NCBI RefSeq assembly: GCF_003925875.1
Contig: NZ_AP019309.1
Coordinates: 1,798,001-1,862,000, forward strand
Length of the DNA stretch: 64,000 nt
From: Intestinibaculum porci
GTDB lineage: Bacteria; Bacillota_I; Bacilli_A; Erysipelotrichales; Coprobacillaceae
Direction: 5' to 3'
This document shows, in pieces, positions 21,016-37,401 of the stretch. The position numbers and the translations under genes are program-made. How positions within the stretch are numbered: position 1 is the first letter of the stretch; the number at the start of each line of letters is the position of its first letter. The notes under the pieces are model-generated. The model did no database searches. It saw only the letters and a program-made list of their open reading frames with translations, and was not told where the DNA came from.

Positions 21016-21051
21016 GCCTAAAAAGCATGAAAGGCGCCTTTGGCGCCTTTC
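21016..21051 (-). terminator. Terminator of the FMN oxidoreductase gene
   Basis: A 10-bp perfect GC-rich inverted repeat (21029-21038 with 21042-21051), then ATGCTTTTT on the minus strand. Confidence 0.88.
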
Positions 21052-21625
21052 ACTTAAACAAACGTAAAATATCATCCTTCGCTTTTTCTAATAGCACATT
21101 CGTATCCGTATCCACCATATCAAGACAATCCACTTTGATTTCATAGGTCTGTTGAATGTCAAACATTTGCGTACATAATGCTTTGATATAACCATACCCA
21201 TAGGTATCATCGAGAATTCTTGATCCGGCCGTAGTGACATAATAAAGTTTCGTCGCTTTGCATAAACCATAGCTGCTGCCATCACGATGATAATCATAAG
21301 TAATCGAAGCCACGCAGATATTTTCCAGATACACCTTTAATAATGAAGGAAAAGATAAGTCATAATAAGGCGCACTGATAATAATCTGATCAGCCTGCGC
21401 AAACTGATGCGCCGCCTCAAAAACAGGATGATCAATGACATCCTGAAAAAGTAAAAGCGAACGTTCTTTCAGTGCTTCTCGATCTAAAGGATGCAGATGC
21501 TTTTCATCCAGTTTGACTTCTTCGACGATGTCATCCATTTTAACGATCTGATCAATAAGAAAACGGGCTAATCGGTTGGTGCGTGATTCATCACGAATAC
21601 ATGCATTAATATAAAGTAATTTCAT
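21050..21625 (-). CDS. FMN-dependent NAD(P)H oxidoreductase (flavodoxin fold, AzoR/MdaB-like)
   Basis: 191 residues from ATG 21625; GAGG lies 8 nt before it, while the ATG at 21631 is too close to the same site. Motifs LYINACIRDESRTNRLARFL (FMN phosphate site), IISAPYYDLSFPSLLKVYLEN and TTAGS are those of the azoreductase/quinone reductase group. The left edge of the tandem repeat (21619) falls in codons 2-3, so copies 2 and 3 of the array carry only this gene's leader and first two codons. The gene itself is intact at the left end of the array. Confidence 0.87.
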   Translation of the reverse strand: MKLLYINACIRDESRTNRLARFLIDQIVKMDDIVEEVKLDEKHLHPLDREALKERSLLLFQDVIDHPVFEAAHQFAQADQIIISAPYYDLSFPSLLKVYLENICVASITYDYHRDGSSYGLCKATKLYYVTTAGSRILDDTYGYGYIKALCTQMFDIQQTYEIKVDCLDMVDTDTNVLLEKAKDDILRLFK

Positions 21626-21686
21626 TTGCATCGCCTCTTCTTGTCTCTATTGTATCAAATACGCCAAAAGAAAAAAGGAAAAGTAT

Positions 21687-21719
21687 CCAAAAGAAAAAAA
21701 CTGTGAATATCACAGTTTT
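21687..21719 (-). terminator. Amylase terminator (copy 1; also at +3582 and +7164)
   Basis: A 10-bp perfect inverted repeat 21697-21706 with 21710-21719, followed by seven T on the minus strand; it overlaps the stop codon of the amylase gene. Identical copies lie at 25279-25301 and 28861-28883. Confidence 0.85.
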
Positions 21720-23058
21720 AATGGAAAAGGGCAATCCCTTCATCACTTTGTAAAATGATTGGCTCACCATCTGTCGCGATCGTTCCTTCACGAATTTCTA
21801 CACGCTGTCCATCAATCAGATTGGTGTAATAACCATCATGCAGACCACTTTGCCCAAGGTCTAGGAATGAGGATTGACCATGAAAATGGAATAACCCGAC
21901 TAAATAAGGATGATCCTGATCATCTCGTGGTGATGAGGCATTTTCATGATGAATGGCCATCAGGACATCATCACGAAGTACTTTCGTTTCATAAGTAGAA
22001 TTGGTCATAATCGGATTCTTCTTGACCTGGTAAAGCTTATGCATGAGCGGTGATAAATCCATTCCTGTATCATAATCAATCGGATCCTTATCAAAGAGAG
22101 CTGGCGTATGCATAGCGCCGGCTTCCTGACCATTATAAAGCATCGCAATACCTTTATTGAAATACATAAAAGCTAAATGATTGCGCAGTGCTTTTTCATC
22201 TGGAATACTGAAATGTGCACGATTACGATCATGATTTTCTAAGAAACGCGCTTTTACATAATTATCGGGATAGATCGTTTCCTGACGATTGATCGCCGCA
22301 CTATATGTTTGTAAGGACACTTTTCCAGCCAGATAATCTTTAAAGATGCCAAAGATATCATAATCATAAGCCATATCGAAAGCCTGATAAATCTCACTGT
22401 CGCTAGCGCTTGCTATGCCGCGTGAGCGGTTATAAGCCACAAAGCCTGGTTCCACGCTTTCTGCTAACCATAAAGCGCCGGGGCGAACCTTTGCCACAGC
22501 TTCGCGCGCCGCTAACCAGAAATCAACGGGGACCATGCTTGCGACATCACAGCGGAAGCCATCGACATCCTTTGCCCACATCTTCAGTGTTTCAATCTGA
22601 TAATCCCACAATTCATGATTCGCGTAATCTAAATCTACCACATCCCACCAGTCACCAACGCGATTGCCAAGCGAGCCATCGGCTTTATGGAAGAACCATT
22701 CGGGATGATGGGTCGCTAAATAAGAATCTGGTGATGTATGATTATAGACGACATCAATAATGACTTTCATCCCCCGTTTATGAATGGCCTCACATAAGCG
22801 CTGAAAATCTTCTTTGCTGCCAAACTTCGGATTGACTTCACGATAATCACGAATGGCATATGGTGAGCCTAATGTCCCTTTGCGATGCAGCTTACCAATG
22901 GGATGAATGGGCATCAGCCAAATGATATCCACACCTAAACTTTGAATCCGGTCTAAATCATTCATAACGGCCTGGAACGTCCCTTCTTTTGAATAATTGC
23001 GTACGTAAATACTATAAATAACCTCATTACGTAATTGTTTGTTTGTATCTTTTGCCAT
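21718..23058 (-). CDS. GH13 alpha-amylase-family glycosidase, copy 1
   Basis: 446 residues from ATG 23058 (MAKDTNKQL). The GH13 barrel motifs are DVVYNHTS (about 102-109), GFRCDVAS with nucleophile Asp171, WLAES with acid/base Glu200 and FLENHD with transition-state Asp277. There is no signal peptide, so it probably acts inside the cell on imported malto-oligosaccharides; exact specificity is unknown. No Shine-Dalgarno is properly placed before ATG 23058, because the IS110 element begins only a few bases upstream. A GTG at 23100 inside the IS would extend the frame by 14 codons. The native promoter and RBS are at the far right of the array. Confidence 0.93.
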   Translation of the reverse strand: MAKDTNKQLRNEVIYSIYVRNYSKEGTFQAVMNDLDRIQSLGVDIIWLMPIHPIGKLHRKGTLGSPYAIRDYREVNPKFGSKEDFQRLCEAIHKRGMKVIIDVVYNHTSPDSYLATHHPEWFFHKADGSLGNRVGDWWDVVDLDYANHELWDYQIETLKMWAKDVDGFRCDVASMVPVDFWLAAREAVAKVRPGALWLAESVEPGFVAYNRSRGIASASDSEIYQAFDMAYDYDIFGIFKDYLAGKVSLQTYSAAINRQETIYPDNYVKARFLENHDRNRAHFSIPDEKALRNHLAFMYFNKGIAMLYNGQEAGAMHTPALFDKDPIDYDTGMDLSPLMHKLYQVKKNPIMTNSTYETKVLRDDVLMAIHHENASSPRDDQDHPYLVGLFHFHGQSSFLDLGQSGLHDGYYTNLIDGQRVEIREGTIATDGEPIILQSDEGIALFH

Positions 23059-23070
23059 AATAAATACACA

Positions 23071-23097
23071 TGTCAAAACGTCGTTGCCGTTTTGACA
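23071..23097. repeat. 10-bp perfect inverted repeat near the IS110 left end
   Basis: TGTCAAAACG at 23071-23080 and CGTTTTGACA at 23088-23097, spacer 7. It lies about 13 bp upstream of the amylase start codon. It may be a subterminal structure of the IS or an RNA hairpin that hampers amylase translation. Also in copies 2 and 3. Confidence 0.8.
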
Positions 23098-23395
23098 CAC
23101 CTTGCAATGAATATATCAATTCAATGCAGGTGTTTTTCTCCTTTCCAAATTTATTTTTTTCGTTCCCTCTGTATCGTTTGATTTGTTGTGGTTACGAACC
23201 TACAATTTATTTGATGGAGATTCGTACTACAAAGCACGGTGAGGGGCGTTGTACGGTTAAACTCAATCGTTAATCAAAACAGCATAATAAATTGTGTGAG
23301 ATCAGCCATTCATGCACATCTGAGTAGACCCGTTGAGGCTGTAGATTAATCAATGACTAACAGTTAATCTTTAGTGCTGGCTGACCAGTCAACGT
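23098..23395 (+). ncRNA. Structured 5' non-coding region of IS110; candidate bridge RNA
   Basis: About 300 bases without a credible ORF, with several hairpins: 23098-23132 followed by TTTTT, 23186-23205 (stem TTGTGGTT, loop ACG), 23343-23370 (7-bp stem, 14-nt loop) and 23377-23388 (CTGG-CTGA-CCAG). Established knowledge: IS110-family elements encode a bridge RNA in a non-coding end, with two internal loops that pair with target and donor DNA. That this region is such an RNA is inference from position and structure. Also at 26680-26977 and 30262-30559. Confidence 0.55.
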
Positions 23396-23426
23396 ATCTC
23401 CTTCAAAAAATTATTTGAAAGGAGAT
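23396..23426 (+). promoter_or_regulatory. Hairpin that hides the transposase ribosome binding site
   Basis: ATCTCCTTCAAA (23396-23407) pairs with TTTGAAAGGAGAT (23414-23426) with one bulged base. The right arm contains the GAAAGGAG that serves the ATG at 23434. The structure should limit translation, especially from read-through transcripts. Identical in copies 2 and 3. Confidence 0.85.
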
Positions 23427-23433
23427 TTTTGCT

Positions 23434-24936
23434 ATGAAAGTAATTCGCAATCCGAAAGACTTTCGAATCGTTTATTCAAGAGCCTGTGGCATTGACGTTC
23501 ACAAAAACTTTATTGTATGCACAGCATGCATTCCTGGCAGCAAGCCTGATCAGTGGAAGTTCATTACCAGACGATTTTCGACTTTCTACAAGGAATTAGA
23601 GGAATGTGCTGACTGGCTTTCAAAACTTGACTGCCAGAACGTGTGCATGGAATCAACAGGCCAGTACTATATACCTGTTCATGACGTTCTTGAGAAGAAA
23701 CTGTCGAACGTCAGGGTCGTCAACCCTAAATGGGTTAAAGCCGTCAAGGGCAACAAGGACGACAAGAAAGATTCCAAATGGATCTGTCAGCTTTTTAGGT
23801 TTGGCATGACAAAATCCAGCTTTATTCCAGGAGAAGAGATCAGAACCCTGAGAGGTGAAACGAGATACCGCTATAAAGTCATCAGCATGCGAACATCCGA
23901 AATGAACCGCTATCAGAACGCACTGACAGTCGGAGGTTTCAAAGTAGATGCAGTCTTTTCTGATGTCTTCGGCAAGTCTGCTCAGGCAATCATTAACCTT
24001 GTCCTTTCGGGTAAGGAATACACTGACAAGGATATTCTGTCACTTGTTCACAAAAACTGTAAGTCATCACCTGAGAAAATTCTTGAAGCCGTAAATGGAA
24101 TCAGAATGAATGATACTCAGAAAAAAAGACTTATAATCATCAAGAATCATTTAGACTATCTCACTGATGAAATTGGCGAGATTAATAAACAAATTGACTG
24201 TCTCGTCAAGGAGATTCCAGGCATGGAAGCAGCCATTGATCACTCATGCATGGTCCCCGGCATAGACAAAAACCTGGCAGTCATCATTATGTCAGAAATT
24301 GGCACTGACATGAGCCCTTGGCCTAGTCAGTACAATCTGGTAAGCTGGGCCGGTCTGGCGCCAGGTGACAATCAATCAGCCGGAAAAAAGAAATCCGTTA
24401 AGATCTCACGAGCCGGTGTCTATCTTAAGCCTGCCCTGGTCGAAGCGGCTCACGCCGCTGTAAAGGATAAGGAGCACCCTTATTATGCCATCAAGTATAA
24501 TACAATTAAAAAACGCCGTGGCCAGAAGAGAGCTATTATTGCAATTGCACGAAAGCTCTTAATTGCAATTTATCACATGCTTCTTACTGGCGAAAAATGG
24601 AATCCTACCGATCTTGCCAACGTTGAAACACCAACTGACAAAAGAAGAAAGTACATCAAGAAAAATCTTTCTAATTCCTTTAGTCAGCTGGAAAATGCTG
24701 GGATGTTACCGGAAGAAATTATTAATTATTTGAAAGGACAATTTTTAGATTTAGAAGTTTCAGCCGAGTCTGAAGATGATAGTGATTCTTCGGATAACGA
24801 TTCATCTAAAGGCACAGAAGCCTCAGCAGACTCTGCCGAAACTAATAATAGTGAATCACCTACTGAGCAATCGGCCTTAGACAGTGATTCACAGACAGAT
24901 TTGACTTTGGTAAAAGATAAATCTGCCGCAAGCTGA
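23434..24936 (+). CDS. IS110-family DEDD transposase, copy 1
   Basis: 500 residues, longer than most IS110 proteins. The RuvC-like DEDD domain shows GIDVHKNF (Asp21), CMESTGQYY (Glu) and KDDKKDSKW (Asp pair). The C-terminal Transposase_20 part shows PGIDKNLAVIIMSEIG and WAGLAPGDNQSAGKK with the conserved serine. The last 60 residues are Asp/Ser/Glu rich and of low complexity, which is unusual. All three copies encode the same protein with no defects, so it is likely active. Confidence 0.95.
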   Translation: MKVIRNPKDFRIVYSRACGIDVHKNFIVCTACIPGSKPDQWKFITRRFSTFYKELEECADWLSKLDCQNVCMESTGQYYIPVHDVLEKKLSNVRVVNPKWVKAVKGNKDDKKDSKWICQLFRFGMTKSSFIPGEEIRTLRGETRYRYKVISMRTSEMNRYQNALTVGGFKVDAVFSDVFGKSAQAIINLVLSGKEYTDKDILSLVHKNCKSSPEKILEAVNGIRMNDTQKKRLIIIKNHLDYLTDEIGEINKQIDCLVKEIPGMEAAIDHSCMVPGIDKNLAVIIMSEIGTDMSPWPSQYNLVSWAGLAPGDNQSAGKKKSVKISRAGVYLKPALVEAAHAAVKDKEHPYYAIKYNTIKKRRGQKRAIIAIARKLLIAIYHMLLTGEKWNPTDLANVETPTDKRRKYIKKNLSNSFSQLENAGMLPEEIINYLKGQFLDLEVSAESEDDSDSSDNDSSKGTEASADSAETNNSESPTEQSALDSDSQTDLTLVKDKSAAS

Positions 24937-24941
24937 CTTCT

Positions 24942-24970
24942 CCAGAAGAATCAGCAATTTATTCTTCTGG
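24942..24970. terminator. Hairpin after the transposase gene
   Basis: A 10-bp perfect inverted repeat, CCAGAAGAAT (24942-24951) with ATTCTTCTGG (24961-24970). There is no good T run, so it may be a weak terminator or mRNA-end structure. Copies at +3582 and +7164. Confidence 0.6.
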
Positions 24971-25299
24971 AATGTAAAAGCGCTAAAACTTTATAAATTT
25001 TCAATCCATATATCTGTTGTCTTCGTTTTCAGATGATCAGATAGCCCAATGTTAGTTAGTTCTAACAATTTCCAATATCTTGGGGTAAGGGGGATTTTAC
25101 GCTTTTTCAGCTATTGCACCTAAATTATATCATCCTTACAGCAAAAATAAACTCTGTTTCATTTCACATCAATTGTTATTTCATTAATATATTCAGATTA
25201 ATTTCATTTGCATCGCCTCTTCTTGTCTCTATTGTATCAAATACGCCAAAAGAAAAAAGGAAAAGTATCCAAAAGAAAAAAACTGTGAATATCACAGTT

Positions 25300-26640
25300 T
25301 TAATGGAAAAGGGCAATCCCTTCATCACTTTGTAAAATGATTGGCTCACCATCTGTCGCGATCGTTCCTTCACGAATTTCTACACGCTGTCCATCAATCA
25401 GATTGGTGTAATAACCATCATGCAGACCACTTTGCCCAAGGTCTAGGAATGAGGATTGACCATGAAAATGGAATAACCCGACTAAATAAGGATGATCCTG
25501 ATCATCTCGTGGTGATGAGGCATTTTCATGATGAATGGCCATCAGGACATCATCACGAAGTACTTTCGTTTCATAAGTAGAATTGGTCATAATCGGATTC
25601 TTCTTGACCTGGTAAAGCTTATGCATGAGCGGTGATAAATCCATTCCTGTATCATAATCAATCGGATCCTTATCAAAGAGAGCTGGCGTATGCATAGCGC
25701 CGGCTTCCTGACCATTATAAAGCATCGCAATACCTTTATTGAAATACATAAAAGCTAAATGATTGCGCAGTGCTTTTTCATCTGGAATACTGAAATGTGC
25801 ACGATTACGATCATGATTTTCTAAGAAACGCGCTTTTACATAATTATCGGGATAGATCGTTTCCTGACGATTGATCGCCGCACTATATGTTTGTAAGGAC
25901 ACTTTTCCAGCCAGATAATCTTTAAAGATGCCAAAGATATCATAATCATAAGCCATATCGAAAGCCTGATAAATCTCACTGTCGCTAGCGCTTGCTATGC
26001 CGCGTGAGCGGTTATAAGCCACAAAGCCTGGTTCCACGCTTTCTGCTAACCATAAAGCGCCGGGGCGAACCTTTGCCACAGCTTCGCGCGCCGCTAACCA
26101 GAAATCAACGGGGACCATGCTTGCGACATCACAGCGGAAGCCATCGACATCCTTTGCCCACATCTTCAGTGTTTCAATCTGATAATCCCACAATTCATGA
26201 TTCGCGTAATCTAAATCTACCACATCCCACCAGTCACCAACGCGATTGCCAAGCGAGCCATCGGCTTTATGGAAGAACCATTCGGGATGATGGGTCGCTA
26301 AATAAGAATCTGGTGATGTATGATTATAGACGACATCAATAATGACTTTCATCCCCCGTTTATGAATGGCCTCACATAAGCGCTGAAAATCTTCTTTGCT
26401 GCCAAACTTCGGATTGACTTCACGATAATCACGAATGGCATATGGTGAGCCTAATGTCCCTTTGCGATGCAGCTTACCAATGGGATGAATGGGCATCAGC
26501 CAAATGATATCCACACCTAAACTTTGAATCCGGTCTAAATCATTCATAACGGCCTGGAACGTCCCTTCTTTTGAATAATTGCGTACGTAAATACTATAAA
26601 TAACCTCATTACGTAATTGTTTGTTTGTATCTTTTGCCAT
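25300..26640 (-). CDS. GH13 alpha-amylase-family glycosidase, copy 2
   Basis: Protein identical to copy 1. The IS110 copy 2 left end abuts its start codon on the right. Confidence 0.93.
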   Translation of the reverse strand: MAKDTNKQLRNEVIYSIYVRNYSKEGTFQAVMNDLDRIQSLGVDIIWLMPIHPIGKLHRKGTLGSPYAIRDYREVNPKFGSKEDFQRLCEAIHKRGMKVIIDVVYNHTSPDSYLATHHPEWFFHKADGSLGNRVGDWWDVVDLDYANHELWDYQIETLKMWAKDVDGFRCDVASMVPVDFWLAAREAVAKVRPGALWLAESVEPGFVAYNRSRGIASASDSEIYQAFDMAYDYDIFGIFKDYLAGKVSLQTYSAAINRQETIYPDNYVKARFLENHDRNRAHFSIPDEKALRNHLAFMYFNKGIAMLYNGQEAGAMHTPALFDKDPIDYDTGMDLSPLMHKLYQVKKNPIMTNSTYETKVLRDDVLMAIHHENASSPRDDQDHPYLVGLFHFHGQSSFLDLGQSGLHDGYYTNLIDGQRVEIREGTIATDGEPIILQSDEGIALFH

Positions 26641-26643
26641 AAT

Positions 26644-28782
26644 AAATACACATGTCAAAACGTCGTTGCCGTTTTGACACACCTTGCAATGAATATATCA
26701 ATTCAATGCAGGTGTTTTTCTCCTTTCCAAATTTATTTTTTTCGTTCCCTCTGTATCGTTTGATTTGTTGTGGTTACGAACCTACAATTTATTTGATGGA
26801 GATTCGTACTACAAAGCACGGTGAGGGGCGTTGTACGGTTAAACTCAATCGTTAATCAAAACAGCATAATAAATTGTGTGAGATCAGCCATTCATGCACA
26901 TCTGAGTAGACCCGTTGAGGCTGTAGATTAATCAATGACTAACAGTTAATCTTTAGTGCTGGCTGACCAGTCAACGTATCTCCTTCAAAAAATTATTTGA
27001 AAGGAGATTTTTGCTATGAAAGTAATTCGCAATCCGAAAGACTTTCGAATCGTTTATTCAAGAGCCTGTGGCATTGACGTTCACAAAAACTTTATTGTAT
27101 GCACAGCATGCATTCCTGGCAGCAAGCCTGATCAGTGGAAGTTCATTACCAGACGATTTTCGACTTTCTACAAGGAATTAGAGGAATGTGCTGACTGGCT
27201 TTCAAAACTTGACTGCCAGAACGTGTGCATGGAATCAACAGGCCAGTACTATATACCTGTTCATGACGTTCTTGAGAAGAAACTGTCGAACGTCAGGGTC
27301 GTCAACCCTAAATGGGTTAAAGCCGTCAAGGGCAACAAGGACGACAAGAAAGATTCCAAATGGATCTGTCAGCTTTTTAGGTTTGGCATGACAAAATCCA
27401 GCTTTATTCCAGGAGAAGAGATCAGAACCCTGAGAGGTGAAACGAGATACCGCTATAAAGTCATCAGCATGCGAACATCCGAAATGAACCGCTATCAGAA
27501 CGCACTGACAGTCGGAGGTTTCAAAGTAGATGCAGTCTTTTCTGATGTCTTCGGCAAGTCTGCTCAGGCAATCATTAACCTTGTCCTTTCGGGTAAGGAA
27601 TACACTGACAAGGATATTCTGTCACTTGTTCACAAAAACTGTAAGTCATCACCTGAGAAAATTCTTGAAGCCGTAAATGGAATCAGAATGAATGATACTC
27701 AGAAAAAAAGACTTATAATCATCAAGAATCATTTAGACTATCTCACTGATGAAATTGGCGAGATTAATAAACAAATTGACTGTCTCGTCAAGGAGATTCC
27801 AGGCATGGAAGCAGCCATTGATCACTCATGCATGGTCCCCGGCATAGACAAAAACCTGGCAGTCATCATTATGTCAGAAATTGGCACTGACATGAGCCCT
27901 TGGCCTAGTCAGTACAATCTGGTAAGCTGGGCCGGTCTGGCGCCAGGTGACAATCAATCAGCCGGAAAAAAGAAATCCGTTAAGATCTCACGAGCCGGTG
28001 TCTATCTTAAGCCTGCCCTGGTCGAAGCGGCTCACGCCGCTGTAAAGGATAAGGAGCACCCTTATTATGCCATCAAGTATAATACAATTAAAAAACGCCG
28101 TGGCCAGAAGAGAGCTATTATTGCAATTGCACGAAAGCTCTTAATTGCAATTTATCACATGCTTCTTACTGGCGAAAAATGGAATCCTACCGATCTTGCC
28201 AACGTTGAAACACCAACTGACAAAAGAAGAAAGTACATCAAGAAAAATCTTTCTAATTCCTTTAGTCAGCTGGAAAATGCTGGGATGTTACCGGAAGAAA
28301 TTATTAATTATTTGAAAGGACAATTTTTAGATTTAGAAGTTTCAGCCGAGTCTGAAGATGATAGTGATTCTTCGGATAACGATTCATCTAAAGGCACAGA
28401 AGCCTCAGCAGACTCTGCCGAAACTAATAATAGTGAATCACCTACTGAGCAATCGGCCTTAGACAGTGATTCACAGACAGATTTGACTTTGGTAAAAGAT
28501 AAATCTGCCGCAAGCTGACTTCTCCAGAAGAATCAGCAATTTATTCTTCTGGAATGTAAAAGCGCTAAAACTTTATAAATTTTCAATCCATATATCTGTT
28601 GTCTTCGTTTTCAGATGATCAGATAGCCCAATGTTAGTTAGTTCTAACAATTTCCAATATCTTGGGGTAAGGGGGATTTTACGCTTTTTCAGCTATTGCA
28701 CCTAAATTATATCATCCTTACAGCAAAAATAAACTCTGTTTCATTTCACATCAATTGTTATTTCATTAATATATTCAGATTA
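26644..28782 (+). mobile_element. IS110-family element, copy 2
   Basis: Same boundaries relative to the unit as copy 1. Confidence 0.8.
27016..28518 (+). CDS. IS110-family DEDD transposase, copy 2
   Basis: Protein identical to copy 1, with the same sequestered ribosome binding site (26978-27008). Confidence 0.95.
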   Translation: MKVIRNPKDFRIVYSRACGIDVHKNFIVCTACIPGSKPDQWKFITRRFSTFYKELEECADWLSKLDCQNVCMESTGQYYIPVHDVLEKKLSNVRVVNPKWVKAVKGNKDDKKDSKWICQLFRFGMTKSSFIPGEEIRTLRGETRYRYKVISMRTSEMNRYQNALTVGGFKVDAVFSDVFGKSAQAIINLVLSGKEYTDKDILSLVHKNCKSSPEKILEAVNGIRMNDTQKKRLIIIKNHLDYLTDEIGEINKQIDCLVKEIPGMEAAIDHSCMVPGIDKNLAVIIMSEIGTDMSPWPSQYNLVSWAGLAPGDNQSAGKKKSVKISRAGVYLKPALVEAAHAAVKDKEHPYYAIKYNTIKKRRGQKRAIIAIARKLLIAIYHMLLTGEKWNPTDLANVETPTDKRRKYIKKNLSNSFSQLENAGMLPEEIINYLKGQFLDLEVSAESEDDSDSSDNDSSKGTEASADSAETNNSESPTEQSALDSDSQTDLTLVKDKSAAS

Positions 28783-28881
28783 ATTTCATTTGCATCGCCT
28801 CTTCTTGTCTCTATTGTATCAAATACGCCAAAAGAAAAAAGGAAAAGTATCCAAAAGAAAAAAACTGTGAATATCACAGTT

Positions 28882-30222
28882 TTAATGGAAAAGGGCAATC
28901 CCTTCATCACTTTGTAAAATGATTGGCTCACCATCTGTCGCGATCGTTCCTTCACGAATTTCTACACGCTGTCCATCAATCAGATTGGTGTAATAACCAT
29001 CATGCAGACCACTTTGCCCAAGGTCTAGGAATGAGGATTGACCATGAAAATGGAATAACCCGACTAAATAAGGATGATCCTGATCATCTCGTGGTGATGA
29101 GGCATTTTCATGATGAATGGCCATCAGGACATCATCACGAAGTACTTTCGTTTCATAAGTAGAATTGGTCATAATCGGATTCTTCTTGACCTGGTAAAGC
29201 TTATGCATGAGCGGTGATAAATCCATTCCTGTATCATAATCAATCGGATCCTTATCAAAGAGAGCTGGCGTATGCATAGCGCCGGCTTCCTGACCATTAT
29301 AAAGCATCGCAATACCTTTATTGAAATACATAAAAGCTAAATGATTGCGCAGTGCTTTTTCATCTGGAATACTGAAATGTGCACGATTACGATCATGATT
29401 TTCTAAGAAACGCGCTTTTACATAATTATCGGGATAGATCGTTTCCTGACGATTGATCGCCGCACTATATGTTTGTAAGGACACTTTTCCAGCCAGATAA
29501 TCTTTAAAGATGCCAAAGATATCATAATCATAAGCCATATCGAAAGCCTGATAAATCTCACTGTCGCTAGCGCTTGCTATGCCGCGTGAGCGGTTATAAG
29601 CCACAAAGCCTGGTTCCACGCTTTCTGCTAACCATAAAGCGCCGGGGCGAACCTTTGCCACAGCTTCGCGCGCCGCTAACCAGAAATCAACGGGGACCAT
29701 GCTTGCGACATCACAGCGGAAGCCATCGACATCCTTTGCCCACATCTTCAGTGTTTCAATCTGATAATCCCACAATTCATGATTCGCGTAATCTAAATCT
29801 ACCACATCCCACCAGTCACCAACGCGATTGCCAAGCGAGCCATCGGCTTTATGGAAGAACCATTCGGGATGATGGGTCGCTAAATAAGAATCTGGTGATG
29901 TATGATTATAGACGACATCAATAATGACTTTCATCCCCCGTTTATGAATGGCCTCACATAAGCGCTGAAAATCTTCTTTGCTGCCAAACTTCGGATTGAC
30001 TTCACGATAATCACGAATGGCATATGGTGAGCCTAATGTCCCTTTGCGATGCAGCTTACCAATGGGATGAATGGGCATCAGCCAAATGATATCCACACCT
30101 AAACTTTGAATCCGGTCTAAATCATTCATAACGGCCTGGAACGTCCCTTCTTTTGAATAATTGCGTACGTAAATACTATAAATAACCTCATTACGTAATT
30201 GTTTGTTTGTATCTTTTGCCAT
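28882..30222 (-). CDS. GH13 alpha-amylase-family glycosidase, copy 3
   Basis: Protein identical to copies 1 and 2. It is the copy nearest the native promoter, but 2.14 kb of IS110 in antisense orientation lies between them. Confidence 0.93.
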   Translation of the reverse strand: MAKDTNKQLRNEVIYSIYVRNYSKEGTFQAVMNDLDRIQSLGVDIIWLMPIHPIGKLHRKGTLGSPYAIRDYREVNPKFGSKEDFQRLCEAIHKRGMKVIIDVVYNHTSPDSYLATHHPEWFFHKADGSLGNRVGDWWDVVDLDYANHELWDYQIETLKMWAKDVDGFRCDVASMVPVDFWLAAREAVAKVRPGALWLAESVEPGFVAYNRSRGIASASDSEIYQAFDMAYDYDIFGIFKDYLAGKVSLQTYSAAINRQETIYPDNYVKARFLENHDRNRAHFSIPDEKALRNHLAFMYFNKGIAMLYNGQEAGAMHTPALFDKDPIDYDTGMDLSPLMHKLYQVKKNPIMTNSTYETKVLRDDVLMAIHHENASSPRDDQDHPYLVGLFHFHGQSSFLDLGQSGLHDGYYTNLIDGQRVEIREGTIATDGEPIILQSDEGIALFH

Positions 30223-30225
30223 AAT

Positions 30226-32364
30226 AAATACACATGTCAAAACGTCGTTGCCGTTTTGACACACCTTGCAATGAATATATCAATTCAATGCAGGTGTTTT
30301 TCTCCTTTCCAAATTTATTTTTTTCGTTCCCTCTGTATCGTTTGATTTGTTGTGGTTACGAACCTACAATTTATTTGATGGAGATTCGTACTACAAAGCA
30401 CGGTGAGGGGCGTTGTACGGTTAAACTCAATCGTTAATCAAAACAGCATAATAAATTGTGTGAGATCAGCCATTCATGCACATCTGAGTAGACCCGTTGA
30501 GGCTGTAGATTAATCAATGACTAACAGTTAATCTTTAGTGCTGGCTGACCAGTCAACGTATCTCCTTCAAAAAATTATTTGAAAGGAGATTTTTGCTATG
30601 AAAGTAATTCGCAATCCGAAAGACTTTCGAATCGTTTATTCAAGAGCCTGTGGCATTGACGTTCACAAAAACTTTATTGTATGCACAGCATGCATTCCTG
30701 GCAGCAAGCCTGATCAGTGGAAGTTCATTACCAGACGATTTTCGACTTTCTACAAGGAATTAGAGGAATGTGCTGACTGGCTTTCAAAACTTGACTGCCA
30801 GAACGTGTGCATGGAATCAACAGGCCAGTACTATATACCTGTTCATGACGTTCTTGAGAAGAAACTGTCGAACGTCAGGGTCGTCAACCCTAAATGGGTT
30901 AAAGCCGTCAAGGGCAACAAGGACGACAAGAAAGATTCCAAATGGATCTGTCAGCTTTTTAGGTTTGGCATGACAAAATCCAGCTTTATTCCAGGAGAAG
31001 AGATCAGAACCCTGAGAGGTGAAACGAGATACCGCTATAAAGTCATCAGCATGCGAACATCCGAAATGAACCGCTATCAGAACGCACTGACAGTCGGAGG
31101 TTTCAAAGTAGATGCAGTCTTTTCTGATGTCTTCGGCAAGTCTGCTCAGGCAATCATTAACCTTGTCCTTTCGGGTAAGGAATACACTGACAAGGATATT
31201 CTGTCACTTGTTCACAAAAACTGTAAGTCATCACCTGAGAAAATTCTTGAAGCCGTAAATGGAATCAGAATGAATGATACTCAGAAAAAAAGACTTATAA
31301 TCATCAAGAATCATTTAGACTATCTCACTGATGAAATTGGCGAGATTAATAAACAAATTGACTGTCTCGTCAAGGAGATTCCAGGCATGGAAGCAGCCAT
31401 TGATCACTCATGCATGGTCCCCGGCATAGACAAAAACCTGGCAGTCATCATTATGTCAGAAATTGGCACTGACATGAGCCCTTGGCCTAGTCAGTACAAT
31501 CTGGTAAGCTGGGCCGGTCTGGCGCCAGGTGACAATCAATCAGCCGGAAAAAAGAAATCCGTTAAGATCTCACGAGCCGGTGTCTATCTTAAGCCTGCCC
31601 TGGTCGAAGCGGCTCACGCCGCTGTAAAGGATAAGGAGCACCCTTATTATGCCATCAAGTATAATACAATTAAAAAACGCCGTGGCCAGAAGAGAGCTAT
31701 TATTGCAATTGCACGAAAGCTCTTAATTGCAATTTATCACATGCTTCTTACTGGCGAAAAATGGAATCCTACCGATCTTGCCAACGTTGAAACACCAACT
31801 GACAAAAGAAGAAAGTACATCAAGAAAAATCTTTCTAATTCCTTTAGTCAGCTGGAAAATGCTGGGATGTTACCGGAAGAAATTATTAATTATTTGAAAG
31901 GACAATTTTTAGATTTAGAAGTTTCAGCCGAGTCTGAAGATGATAGTGATTCTTCGGATAACGATTCATCTAAAGGCACAGAAGCCTCAGCAGACTCTGC
32001 CGAAACTAATAATAGTGAATCACCTACTGAGCAATCGGCCTTAGACAGTGATTCACAGACAGATTTGACTTTGGTAAAAGATAAATCTGCCGCAAGCTGA
32101 CTTCTCCAGAAGAATCAGCAATTTATTCTTCTGGAATGTAAAAGCGCTAAAACTTTATAAATTTTCAATCCATATATCTGTTGTCTTCGTTTTCAGATGA
32201 TCAGATAGCCCAATGTTAGTTAGTTCTAACAATTTCCAATATCTTGGGGTAAGGGGGATTTTACGCTTTTTCAGCTATTGCACCTAAATTATATCATCCT
32301 TACAGCAAAAATAAACTCTGTTTCATTTCACATCAATTGTTATTTCATTAATATATTCAGATTA
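30226..32364 (+). mobile_element. IS110-family element, copy 3
   Basis: The right end at 32364 adjoins A at 32365 and the GGAGG ribosome binding site of the amylase. This copy therefore still shows the original right insertion junction. Confidence 0.82.
30598..32100 (+). CDS. IS110-family DEDD transposase, copy 3
   Basis: Protein identical to copies 1 and 2, with the sequestered ribosome binding site at 30560-30590. Confidence 0.95.
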   Translation: MKVIRNPKDFRIVYSRACGIDVHKNFIVCTACIPGSKPDQWKFITRRFSTFYKELEECADWLSKLDCQNVCMESTGQYYIPVHDVLEKKLSNVRVVNPKWVKAVKGNKDDKKDSKWICQLFRFGMTKSSFIPGEEIRTLRGETRYRYKVISMRTSEMNRYQNALTVGGFKVDAVFSDVFGKSAQAIINLVLSGKEYTDKDILSLVHKNCKSSPEKILEAVNGIRMNDTQKKRLIIIKNHLDYLTDEIGEINKQIDCLVKEIPGMEAAIDHSCMVPGIDKNLAVIIMSEIGTDMSPWPSQYNLVSWAGLAPGDNQSAGKKKSVKISRAGVYLKPALVEAAHAAVKDKEHPYYAIKYNTIKKRRGQKRAIIAIARKLLIAIYHMLLTGEKWNPTDLANVETPTDKRRKYIKKNLSNSFSQLENAGMLPEEIINYLKGQFLDLEVSAESEDDSDSSDNDSSKGTEASADSAETNNSESPTEQSALDSDSQTDLTLVKDKSAAS

Positions 32365-32414
32365 TCCTCCTCACTTTTTTCATTATACAAAAGTGTCATG
32401 AAAAAGACATGACA
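32365..32414 (-). promoter_or_regulatory. Orphaned amylase promoter, operator-like repeat and ribosome binding site
   Basis: Read on the minus strand: a 7-bp inverted repeat TGTCATG-n7-CATGACA (32394-32414), a -10 box TATAAT (32382-32387), then GTGAGGAGGA (32365-32374), an excellent ribosome binding site whose last base touches the IS110 right end. No gene start follows, whereas the amylase start codon is found at the other end of the IS with no RBS. The -35 box is poor and overlapped by the inverted repeat, so a regulator may act there. Confidence 0.75.
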
Positions 32415-32444
32415 ATTCTTTAGGTTCCTTATGAAATTTCTTAG

Positions 32445-32476
32445 AAAAAAAGATATGACTGCCAATTGGCAGTCAT
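32445..32476 (-). terminator. Strong terminator of the candidate structured RNA
   Basis: A 22-bp perfect palindrome at 32455-32476 (arms ATGACTGCCAA/TTGGCAGTCAT) followed by ATCTTTTTTTC on the minus strand. Confidence 0.88.
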
Positions 32477-32858
32477 ACCGGTTCCATGAAACGTGAGGGA
32501 AATCTCAGGATCTCTGCAGTGATCCCGCCTTTCCCATCATTTCTGATGTTTAAGGGCAATTAATGGAATTGTAACACAAACTCCTAATTCGAATGACACC
32601 TAAGGGTCATTGATACATGTCAGAAGATCATGCTCACCCTTACGTGTGATTCATTTTTATTAAAGGCAGAGGTTATTGTTTTACAATGTGTATGATCCAT
32701 TAGAATCCAACCATCTCCTTCCGGTGAACAGGCTTCCAGGTATTACCCCTTCTTTATCTTCCAAAAGGTATTCATCCTTTTTTCAAGAAGGAATAACAAT
32801 CTCCTTTCTTCTTTATCACCACTTGCAATATTTACATGCATGTCTCTTGCTTAAGCTT
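32445..32858 (-). ncRNA. Candidate structured RNA of about 410 nt (identity unknown)
   Basis: A consensus promoter at 32865-32892 would start a transcript near 32858 that ends at the terminator above. No convincing ORF lies inside. Local hairpins on the minus strand include one closed by a GAAA tetraloop (CATCA-GAAA-TGATG, 32549-32562 region), GGATC...GATCC around 32505-32522, ATTGT-AAA-ACAAT near 32675, AAAAGG...CCTTTT near 32770 and AATGAC...GTCATT near 32600. It is not tmRNA, RNase P RNA or SRP RNA by the motifs I know. It could be a free-standing RNA or a long leader of the amylase. Confidence 0.5.
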
Positions 32859-33022
32859 AATTATATTATAGTCTTGTTTTCATATTTGTCAATATCATAT
32901 GATTTTATCTATTATTTATGATATTCATAATTATTTGTATTATTCCTATATATAAAGTGCCGATATGATCGTCATTCTCTAATTATGTGATAATATTTTA
33001 TCATCTTGTAGGAATTTAATAA
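32848..33022 (-). repeat. Upstream regulatory module, copy A (related to 39328-39527)
   Basis: On the plus strand both copies start with CTCTTGCTTAAGCTTA, then a promoter with 16-bp spacing, and end with the pattern TGTGATAAT....TTATCATC/ATTATCATG..GGAATTT.ATAAAT. The middle is diverged but alignable. Copy A contains TGATAA-TATT-TTATCA. Confidence 0.65.
32865..32892 (-). promoter_or_regulatory. Promoter of the candidate structured RNA
   Basis: Minus strand -35 TTGACA (32887-32892), spacer 16, -10 TATAAT (32865-32870). The same boxes, spacing and downstream TAAGCTTAAGCAAGAG occur at the urease promoter. Confidence 0.8.
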
Positions 33023-33055
33023 ATTAAAAATTCCTTCTTTTTTAAGGAAGGAATT
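33021..33055 (-). terminator. Terminator of the urease operon
   Basis: Arms AATTCCTTC (33029-33037) and GAAGGAATT (33047-33055), followed by TTTTTAATTT on the minus strand; overlaps the ureD stop codon. Confidence 0.87.
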
Positions 33056-33917
33056 AAATATGGAGAGAGTGCGGCCCTTTCCGTAAAGCTAAAGGGGCTA
33101 AGCCGATGGCTTGGCGATAAGCCTTGATCAAAGTCTCCATCACTTTTCTATTCTCATCTATGCTCATCCCTAAAACACGTAAAACCATTCCTTCGCTTTC
33201 AATCATCGATAAGCCAAAGCGAGATGATGTCTGCGCGTCTTCAAGGATGTTTCTGAAGTATTCAACCTGCTTCTGATTGATATCTTCATCAATAATTGTC
33301 ACTGAGTTAAAGTTCGTGTAGCCTTCAAAAAAGCCAATCTCAGACATGGGATCATAACGCGGATCCACGAGCATAAAATCATTCATAAGTAAACGTTTTT
33401 GACGATAGATTCTAGTTTTAAGAGCCATTTGATGATAAGTGAACAAGCCCCCTTGCTCATCATAGCCGGCGGTTAAGCCTTCACTTAAAATCAGCTTCGC
33501 GTGTTTTTCTAAAACGATCTCATTATTTTGGTGAAAGAGCGCATCTTTATAAGGAATCGTTTCATCAAAGTAATATTCACACAGCGCATTTTCTCCCACT
33601 TTAAGCACGCAATCCTGATGTGTAGTGAAGCATTGATCGCACTTGTAAATATAATTAGGCGCCTGCGTCGTAAGAATGGCATGCGTATCATCATCTAAGA
33701 CAACCTCCTGCCGGTAACACTCTCCTTCCACATACCCGCCGCCTGTCGCAATCAGAAAGTAATAAGGAAAATCATCGTCATTAGGAATGGCGGCGGAAAT
33801 GCGGGAGTTGCCATGACGATAGAGATCATCTGCGACGCTGCGCTCCCCACGCCTTACAAAATGCATGCGGATCTCGCCGTCTAAAGATCTTCCAGTAAAC
33901 AGTCCTTTTTGAGCCAT
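33054..33917 (-). CDS. ureD: Urease accessory protein UreD (UreH)
   Basis: 287 residues. Typical UreD segments are [41 protein letters not shown] and [18 protein letters not shown]. UreD is the scaffold that binds apo-urease and then UreF and UreG for nickel insertion. It overlaps ureG by 37 bp and is last in the operon. Placing ureD after ureG is common in Bacillota. Confidence 0.95.
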
Positions 33918-35679: not shown

Positions 35680-37401
35680 TTAGAAGAAATAGTAACGCTG
35701 CGCCAGTGGGACTTCTTCGACTGGATCACAGGTAATTTCTTCGCCATCAATCGTAACGATAAAGCTCTGAGGATCGATCTTGATCGTCGCTGGTGCATAA
35801 TTGTTTAATTTCATATCACGTTTCGTCAGATTTCTTGTCTTATGCACCGGTAAGACAATTTTATCTAATCCAAGCTGCTCTTTAATGCCATGTTCATAGG
35901 CATAAGTCGATACAAAGGTAATACTGGTTTTGGCCATACCCTTGCCGTAGCCGCCATAAAGATCACGCATCATGCGCGGTTCTGGTGTTGGCAGTGAAGA
36001 GGAAGCATCGCCCACAACGCCATAAGCGATGACGCCAGCTTTGAGCACTAATTTTGGTTTTGCGCCAAAGAATTTAGGATCCCAAATGACTAAGTCGGCA
36101 TATTTGCCTACTTCAACAGAACCGATATAATCAGCAACACCATTGACAATGGCTGGGTTAATCGTATATTTAGCGACATAACGTTTGATACGTTCATTAT
36201 CGGAATATTCATAGTCACCCTTTAATGGACCACGCTGCTTTTTCATTTTATCCGCTAGCTGCCAGCAGCGCATCGCCACTTCGCCGACACGGCCCATCGC
36301 CATCGCATCACTGGTCATGACGGATAACGCGCCCATGTCATGCAGCACATCTTCCGCTGCGACCGTCTGTTTACGAACACGAGATTCCGCAAAAGCCACA
36401 TCTTCTGGCACCTTTGGGTCTAAGTTATGACAGACCATCGTCATATCGAATAATTCATCAATAACATTGGTTGTATAAGGATTGGTTGGGTTGGTCGAGC
36501 TTGGCAAAATGTTCTGCTCTCCTGCCACGATCATAATATCAGGCGCATGACCGCCGCCGGCACCTTCAGTATGGAAAGTATGAACCGTTCGCCCAGCGAA
36601 GGCATTGAGCGTATTTTCTACGAAGCCGCCTTCATTTAACGAATCGGTATGAACAGCGTAAGAAACATCATATTCATCGGCTGCCTTGATGGAGTTATCG
36701 ATCCCGGCAGCGGTTGCGCCCCAGTCTTCATGGGTTTTAATGCCTGCCGCTCCGGCTCTGACCTGTTCGGCAATGGTTTCCGGAGTAGCCCCGGCGCCTT
36801 TGGCTAAAAAGCCATAATTAAGCGGATCATGATCGACCGCTTCTAACATGCGGTGAATATGATAAGCTCCCGGCGTTGTCGTAGCCGAGTTAGAGCCATC
36901 CGCCGGACCGGTTCCGCCGCCAAATAAAGTGGTAATGCCGTTATCTAAAGCCGCATGCGCTAAACCGGTCGATAAGTAATGGACATGTAAGTCAATGCCG
37001 CCAGCGGTGACAATCATCCCTTCGCCAGAAATTGCTTCGGTAGAAGCGCCAACGACAAAGTCGATATCATCCATGATATCAGGGTTGCCGCCTTTCCCGA
37101 TAGCGAGAATCTTGCCATCACGAATGCCGATATCGGCTTTATAAATACCGGTATAATCAATGATAAGCGCACCGGAAATAATGGTATCGGCGACTAAAGG
37201 ATTTTTCTCACGGGTCATCGTCGCATTGACGCCCATGCCATCTCTTAAAACTTTCCCGCCGCCAAATTTACTTTCCTGACCATGCACGGTGTAATCTTTT
37301 TCGACGCGGGCAAATAAGTTGGTATCGCCTAAGCGGACACTGTCGCCTTCGGCTGGTCCAAACATCTGGGAATACTGTTTACGATCCATTTTAAAACTCA
37401 T
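35680..37401 (-). CDS. ureC: Urease alpha subunit UreC
   Basis: 573 residues. All catalytic residues sit 5 positions after those of the Klebsiella enzyme: His139, His141, carbamylated Lys222 ([11 protein letters not shown]), His251, His277, flap Cys324 and His325, and Asp365. The residue after His325 is Asn (CHNLDP) where CHHLDP is usual. Urease hydrolyses urea to ammonia and carbamate with two Ni ions. The start overlaps ureB by 4 bp. In a gut or rumen organism it would supply nitrogen and buffer acid. Confidence 0.98.

What the first reader, a model, noticed from the sequence alone, without database searches (positions are those of the whole stretch)
25195..25206. Amplification breakpoint coincides with the IS110 right end and a 2-bp TA identity
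Each copy joins the IS right end (...CAGATTA) to the same point at the start of the oxidoreductase gene (GTA|ATTTC at 21616). The only shared bases are TA. IS110 recombinases are known to recombine at a short shared core guided by a bridge RNA. The junctions therefore fit an IS110-driven recombination between its right end and a second, pseudo-target site 1.44 kb beyond its left end, giving tandem copies of everything between. Also, CATTAATATA occurs just before both breakpoints (21604-21613 and 25182-25191). If true, IS110 could act as a gene amplifier.
Basis: partly seen in the sequence, partly recalled or inferred. Interest (0 to 1): 0.8.

Follow-up and report, generated by a model that had tools for sequence, protein, structure and literature searches.

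The report
IS110 end bounds a gene amplification
Three identical copies of an amylase gene plus a jumping gene stand in a row, and the seam between them falls exactly on the jumping gene's own cut-and-join site, so its RNA-guided recombinase probably made the first duplication.

Summary
In detail: 21617-25198 (amylase + IS110 element, 3582 bp) is repeated three times without a mismatch. Each internal seam joins the IS right end to ATTTC near the start of the FMN-reductase gene, sharing only TA. Relatives define the element. It inserts between the start codon and Shine-Dalgarno (SD) of opposite-strand genes, here the amylase. Its noncoding RNA carries bridge-RNA-type guides that covary with both ends. 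The second site (21617-21618) has the TA core and lies near a start codon. It does not resemble a proper target (no CAT, no SD in place) and only weakly resembles the donor junction. The best reading is aberrant recombination by the IS110 recombinase between its right end and a pseudo-site, in trans or via a 3.6-kb circle, followed by homologous recombination to three copies. A relative genome holds an IS-IS dimer with the same kind of seam. Rivals remain: a lost second IS copy, or microhomology repair at a recombinase break. The shared CATTAATATA is out of register. A wider point emerged: a Firmicutes IS110 clade apparently guided to translation starts, which I did not find described.

The parts
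21617..25198 (.). Amplified unit, copy 1 (3582 bp: amylase + IS110 element); copies 2 and 3 at 25199-28780 and 28781-32362, followed by the core TA 32363-32364
   Evidence: Exact self-match at period 3582, 21617-28782 = 25199-32364
21617..21618 (+). Second breakpoint (pseudo-site) core TA, 4 bp from the FMN-reductase start codon (CAT 21623-21625)
   Evidence: Sequence; reading frame; scored against donor, target and guide
21050..21625 (-). Flavodoxin-fold/FMN-reductase-like gene whose start region holds the pseudo-site; intact to the left of the array
   Evidence: Flavodoxin_2, FMN_red
21718..23058 (-). Alpha-amylase family gene, copy 1; start codon ATG at 23058-23056; further copies 25300-26640 and 28882-30222
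   Evidence: PF00128; orthologues in G018 (73% aa) and G001
23061..23062 (+). Left core TA of the IS (LT = CATAA, i.e. amylase start codon plus 2 nt; LE starts at 23063)
   Evidence: Guide covariation and SD spacing; empty-site comparison in a relative
23063..25198 (+). IS110-family element between its two TA cores
   Evidence: Ends set from multi-copy relatives
23225..23415 (+). Noncoding region, inferred bridge RNA
   Evidence: Aligned with relatives; in the largest predicted helix all 8 pairs have two-sided compensatory changes; the single-sequence fold is not significant
23238..23246 (+). SD-like stretch GGTGAGGGG, candidate right target guide
   Evidence: Conserved as GGTGAGGTGAG / GGTAGGAGGAG in relatives; pairing register not shown
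23283..23292 (+). Left target guide CATAATAAAT, identical to the left junction 23056-23065
   Evidence: Covaries with the left junction across 46 relatives
23340..23348 (+). Left donor guide TGTAGATTA, matching RE TTCAGATTA (wobble at C/T)
   Evidence: Covaries with RE in 14 distinct pairs
23434..24936 (+). IS110 transposase/recombinase, 500 aa
   Evidence: PF01548, PF02371
25199..25200 (+). Right core TA of IS copy 1 = internal seam to the next unit
28781..28782 (+). Right core TA of IS copy 2 = second internal seam
32363..32374 (+). Right core TA of IS copy 3 followed by TCCTCCTCAC, the native SD of the amylase (minus strand)
   Evidence: same layout in relatives

Best explanation
The IS110 element inserted normally between the amylase start codon and its SD (shown by its ends). 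Its RNA-guided recombinase then recombined its right junction (LD-TA-RT) with a pseudo-site in the same orientation 1.44 kb beyond its left end (X-TA-Y), either between sister chromosomes or as an aberrant 3.6-kb circle. This gave the junction LD-TA-Y and a tandem duplication of amylase + IS (inferred). Homologous recombination between the identical 3.6-kb repeats then gave three copies (inferred).
For: The seam is exactly the IS right end plus its core. The core is TA by four lines. (1) Left junction and left target guide covary: 248 of 276 identities against 152.6 +- 6.3 for shuffled pairs. (2) RE and left donor guide covary through the last core base in 14 distinct pairs. (3) SD spacing implies 3.98 nt between start codon and RE end, i.e. 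2 nt of LT plus a 2-nt core. (4) The deoC orthologues without an IS in sister species fit the same 4-nt distance. The second core base agrees between the two ends in 33 of 34 elements and the first in 24 of 34, the same strict/lax pattern reported for IS621 (PMC11208158). The pseudo-site has TA and lies 4 bp from a start codon. Relative G016 has an IS-IS direct dimer with canonical outer junctions and an inner seam RE-TA|TAACC, i.e. RE joined to a left junction 2 bp out of register. IS621 performs excision between same-orientation sites and gave rare genomic deletions and inversions between insertion sites (PMC11208160).
Against: The pseudo-site is a poor match: no CAT, no SD in place, 4 of 8 to the left target guide, and 9 of 17 to the donor junction (top 2.1% of TA sites in the window, the best of six scorings). 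One array only: no other gene + IS array appeared among about 90 RE-like ends examined or in the class and phylum searches, which scored at most three candidates per genome. No reads were available to look for a circle or a deletion product.
Confidence: 0.6

Rival explanations
1. A second copy of the IS once sat at the FMN-reductase site (AAAG-TA-[IS]-TA-ATTTC). Homologous recombination between the two direct IS copies amplified amylase + IS, and the leftmost IS was later excised precisely.
For: Gives exactly the same seams. Flanking direct IS copies are the classical route to tandem arrays (own knowledge), and IS110 elements are reported to excise scarlessly (PMC11208160).
Against: The site lacks the CAT and SD seen at normal insertions of the clade. 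It needs an extra precise excision that leaves no trace, and rejoined empty targets were not detected for the IS1111 element ISEc11 (PMC11187229). It does not explain the shifted inner seam of the G016 dimer.
Confidence: 0.18
2. Illegitimate recombination or template switching with the 2-bp TA microhomology, perhaps at a nick or break left by the recombinase at the IS right end.
For: 2-bp microhomology is ordinary for such events (own knowledge). The pseudo-site resembles the target and donor only weakly.
Against: A random breakpoint would hit the RE core about 0.1% of the time. The nearest longer homology (CATTAATATA) is out of register and not at the seam. The G016 dimer is a second RE-anchored seam.
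Confidence: 0.14
3. Assembly artefact, or a free amylase-IS circle collapsed into the chromosome.
For: Copies are 100% identical. No reads were available.
Against: The genome is one contig of 3.21 Mb. The seam sequence must exist in some molecule even if the copy number is wrong.
Confidence: 0.06

Closest known systems
IS621 and IS110-type bridge-RNA elements (PMC11208160, PMC11208158)
   Same: DEDD + Tnp domains, noncoding RNA upstream of the recombinase, left target and left donor guides matching the ends, 2-nt core with strict second base
   Different: Core TA rather than CT. The natural target is a start codon plus SD instead of a REP element. A gene-sized tandem duplication anchored at RE was not seen in the passages I read.
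ISEc21 / IS1111 seekRNA elements (PMC11187229)
   Same: RNA-guided site choice; a cargo gene placed inside the IS could be moved experimentally
   Different: IS1111 elements have the RNA downstream of tnp, whereas here it is upstream (IS110 type)
IS-flanked tandem gene amplification (IS26-, IS1-type arrays; from own knowledge)
   Same: Direct repeats of gene + IS expand by recombination
   Different: No IS at the left edge here; the first duplication needs a single IS copy and a non-IS site
IS30 tandem dimers (PMC9333248, abstract seen)
   Same: Tandem IS-IS junctions
   Different: Copy-out-paste-in transposition joining inverted repeats; no RNA guide (own knowledge)

Membership tests
IS110 family (IS110-type, bridge RNA) | DEDD RuvC-like N-terminal domain (PF01548) | tested here: met
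   E 1.4e-21, residues 18-165
IS110 family (IS110-type, bridge RNA) | C-terminal Transposase_20 domain (PF02371) | tested here: met
   E 8.8e-15; catalytic serine itself not checked
IS110 family (IS110-type, bridge RNA) | Noncoding RNA in the left end with guides matching target and donor | tested here: met
   Left target and left donor guides covary with the ends; conserved helix. Right guides not established; expression not testable
IS110 family (IS110-type, bridge RNA) | Short core shared by both ends, no long target duplication | tested here: met
   TA at both ends; 4-nt spacing
IS110 family (IS110-type, bridge RNA) | Circular intermediate | not testable with these tools
   No reads or experiment
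IS1111 group | Guide RNA downstream of tnp | tested here: not met
   Guides lie upstream of tnp (23225-23415)
IS1111 group | Subterminal inverted repeats | not tested
   Not searched for specifically
IS-mediated amplification by homologous recombination between flanking IS copies | IS copy at both edges of the array | tested here: not met
   No IS left of copy 1

The most novel reading that the evidence does not exclude
A clade of IS110 elements carries bridge RNAs set to read translation starts (start codon plus SD). It lands between SD and ATG of genes, and its recombinase can also pair its right end with other start regions, so that the neighbouring gene is excised or duplicated with it: a single-copy, RNA-guided gene amplifier.
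Probability: 0.3. Interest if true: 0.82.

Novelty: new variant of a known kind. Interest (0 to 1): 0.63.

Why it matters
If the recombinase made the duplication, one IS110 copy is enough to start gene amplification, without a second IS, and bridge recombinases have a natural side reaction (right end x off-site) that also matters for their use in genome engineering. The clade also offers a natural example of a guide RNA tuned to a feature found upstream of most bacterial genes.

Tried and rejected
CATTAATATA as the cause (slippage): it lies outside the seam and is offset by 4 bp between the two sites. Core AT, or core at CA-TA next to the start codon: SD spacing and the deoC comparison require 4 nt. 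kdpD as a second empty-site test: the only near orthologue has a different upstream region. Intergenic region 32362-33060 as a probe for an empty amylase site: no relative shares it beyond short AT-rich matches. RE-seam pattern in viral contigs: none. Single-sequence fold of the RNA: no better than shuffles. Literature on IS110 at start codons or SDs and on IS110-driven tandem amplification: nothing relevant in the open library, which lacks most subscription papers and the bioRxiv library.

Full report
Observation. The window holds three copies of a 3582-bp unit with no mismatch (21617-28782 = 25199-32364). The unit is an alpha-amylase family gene (minus strand) and an IS110 transposase gene (plus strand). 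The genome is one contig of 3,212,924 bp and holds no other copy of this IS. The seams read ATTCAGAT|TA|ATTTCATTTGC; the left edge AAAG|TA|ATTTC; the right edge ATTCAGAT|TA|TCCTCC.

Ends of the element. Relatives, the nearest at 47-60% protein identity, were collected from whole genomes. The nearest named relatives are Firmicutes such as Thomasclavelia, Holdemanella and uncultured Erysipelotrichaceae. Five identical copies in G016 and nine near-identical copies in G041 show where identity stops. On the left it stops after CAT, the start codon of a gene on the opposite strand. On the right it stops after TTCAGATTA (or TTCACACTT), followed by variable pyrimidine-rich sequence that looks like the SD of that same gene. 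The same layout is seen across some 50 insertions in all: right-flank positions 4-8 are C or T in 234 of 260 cells, and 47 of 62 left junctions open into an ORF of 50 or more codons or run off the contig. That last count is an underestimate, since the script picked a wrong CAT in several loci. In the window, the left flank is the amylase start codon (23056-23058) and the right flank of copy 3 is TCCTCCTCAC, the amylase SD.

Guides. Upstream of the transposase a noncoding region carries CAG[C/T]ATANNAAN. Its variable bases follow the left junction element by element: 248 of 276 identities at positions 4-9 against 152.6 +- 6.3 when guides are shuffled between elements. The shuffle ignores relatedness, so the z-score overstates the case, but single-base changes on both sides recur between close relatives. 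A second stretch follows the right end: 14 distinct RE/guide pairs, e.g. CAGATTA/TAGATTA, CACACTA/CACACTA, CACACTT/GACACTT. These are the left target and left donor guides expected of a bridge RNA, whose left guides pair with the bottom strand (PMC11208158). A conserved helix has two-sided changes at all 8 of its pairs. An SD-like stretch (GGTGAGGTGAG or GGTAGGAGGAG) lies where a right target guide could be, but its pairing register was not shown.

Core. Four lines put the core at TA (23061-23062, 25199-25200). First, guide and junction covary on the left. Second, guide and right end covary through the last base of RE, and the second core base agrees between left and right junctions in 33 of 34 elements, the first in 24 of 34; IS621 shows the same strict second, lax first base. 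Third, exact GGAGG lies on average 3.00 nt from the RE end at 23 insertion sites but 6.98 nt from ATG in 50 ordinary genes of the same loci, so 3.98 nt separate start codon and RE end: two of target and two of core. Fourth, T. cocleata deoC has an insertion while sister species do not, and their SD-to-ATG distance fits 4 nt; the four bases themselves differ (GATG in most sisters), so this is evidence for length, not sequence. The same-genus amylase of G001 natively reads TATTATG, as reconstructed here.

The second site. 21617-21618 is TA, 4 bp from the start codon of an FMN-reductase-like gene. It does not look like a normal target: no CAT in place, no SD in place, and 5 of 14 to the target, a score that 30% of TA sites reach. 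It resembles the donor junction (RE-LE) at 9 of 17, reached by 95 of 4542 TA sites in the window. That is the best of six scorings and so only suggestive. IS621 off-target sites sometimes resembled the donor (PMC11208160).

Mechanism. The exact use of the RE core makes the recombinase the likeliest actor. Recombination of RE-TA-(SD) with X-TA-ATTTC in the same orientation yields RE-TA-ATTTC. In cis that closes a 3.58-kb circle; between sister chromosomes it gives a tandem duplication directly. Homologous recombination can then reach three copies. In G016 (L101) two IS copies lie head to tail with canonical outer junctions and an inner seam CAGATTA|TAACC, where RE meets the left end 2 bp out of register. 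Insertion of one IS into the other's left junction at that register would have altered the outer left junction; RE x left-junction recombination would not. This is the same reaction on a smaller scale. The route through an IS at the FMN site, later lost, gives the same seams and cannot be excluded.

Limits. There is one gene-plus-IS array; none was found in the other loci held, many of which have short flanks, and the class and phylum searches scored at most three candidates per genome. No reads, no circle and no expression data were available. Whether the amylase is still translated without its SD is unknown: the window's left end offers no clear SD, while several relatives' left ends do (e.g. 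G041 GGAGGAATATATG; sequence).

Literature. The open library returned nothing on IS110 at translation starts or IS110-driven tandem amplification. That is weak evidence of novelty, since most subscription papers and the bioRxiv library are not covered.

Noticed in passing
23056-23065, 23238-23292; relatives: An IS110 clade in Firmicutes inserts between start codon and SD of opposite-strand genes; its noncoding RNA carries a guide covering the start codon and an SD-like stretch, so the bridge RNA seems to read translation start sites.
   Followed up: yes
L101 (G016:C1:2357500-2362300): Head-to-tail IS-IS dimer with inner seam CAGATTA|TAACC, two bp out of register with the canonical core.
   Followed up: partly
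left ends of relatives, e.g. L093, L052, L060: Several left ends carry a replacement SD (GGAGG) facing the displaced start codon, perhaps keeping the host gene translated; the window's copy has no clear one.
   Followed up: no
left ends, e.g. window 23074-23097, L069 near the left junction: A short GC-rich or perfect inverted repeat of differing sequence follows the left end in several elements (window: TCAAAACG...CGTTTTGA).
   Followed up: no
left target guide positions 8-9 in relatives: The left target guide continues past the core and matches the IS left end rather than the host right flank, which could be a handshake-type pairing with the recombined product.
   Followed up: no
36960-37248: Rfam 5'_ureB_sRNA (RF02514), 74 bits, on the plus strand overlapping the start region of the minus-strand urease alpha gene (35680-37401), in a Firmicutes urease operon.
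   Followed up: no
32380-32415: Inverted repeat GTCATG...CATGAC next to a TATAAT-like box upstream of the amylase SD: a possible operator and promoter now 2.1 kb from the nearest amylase start.
   Followed up: no
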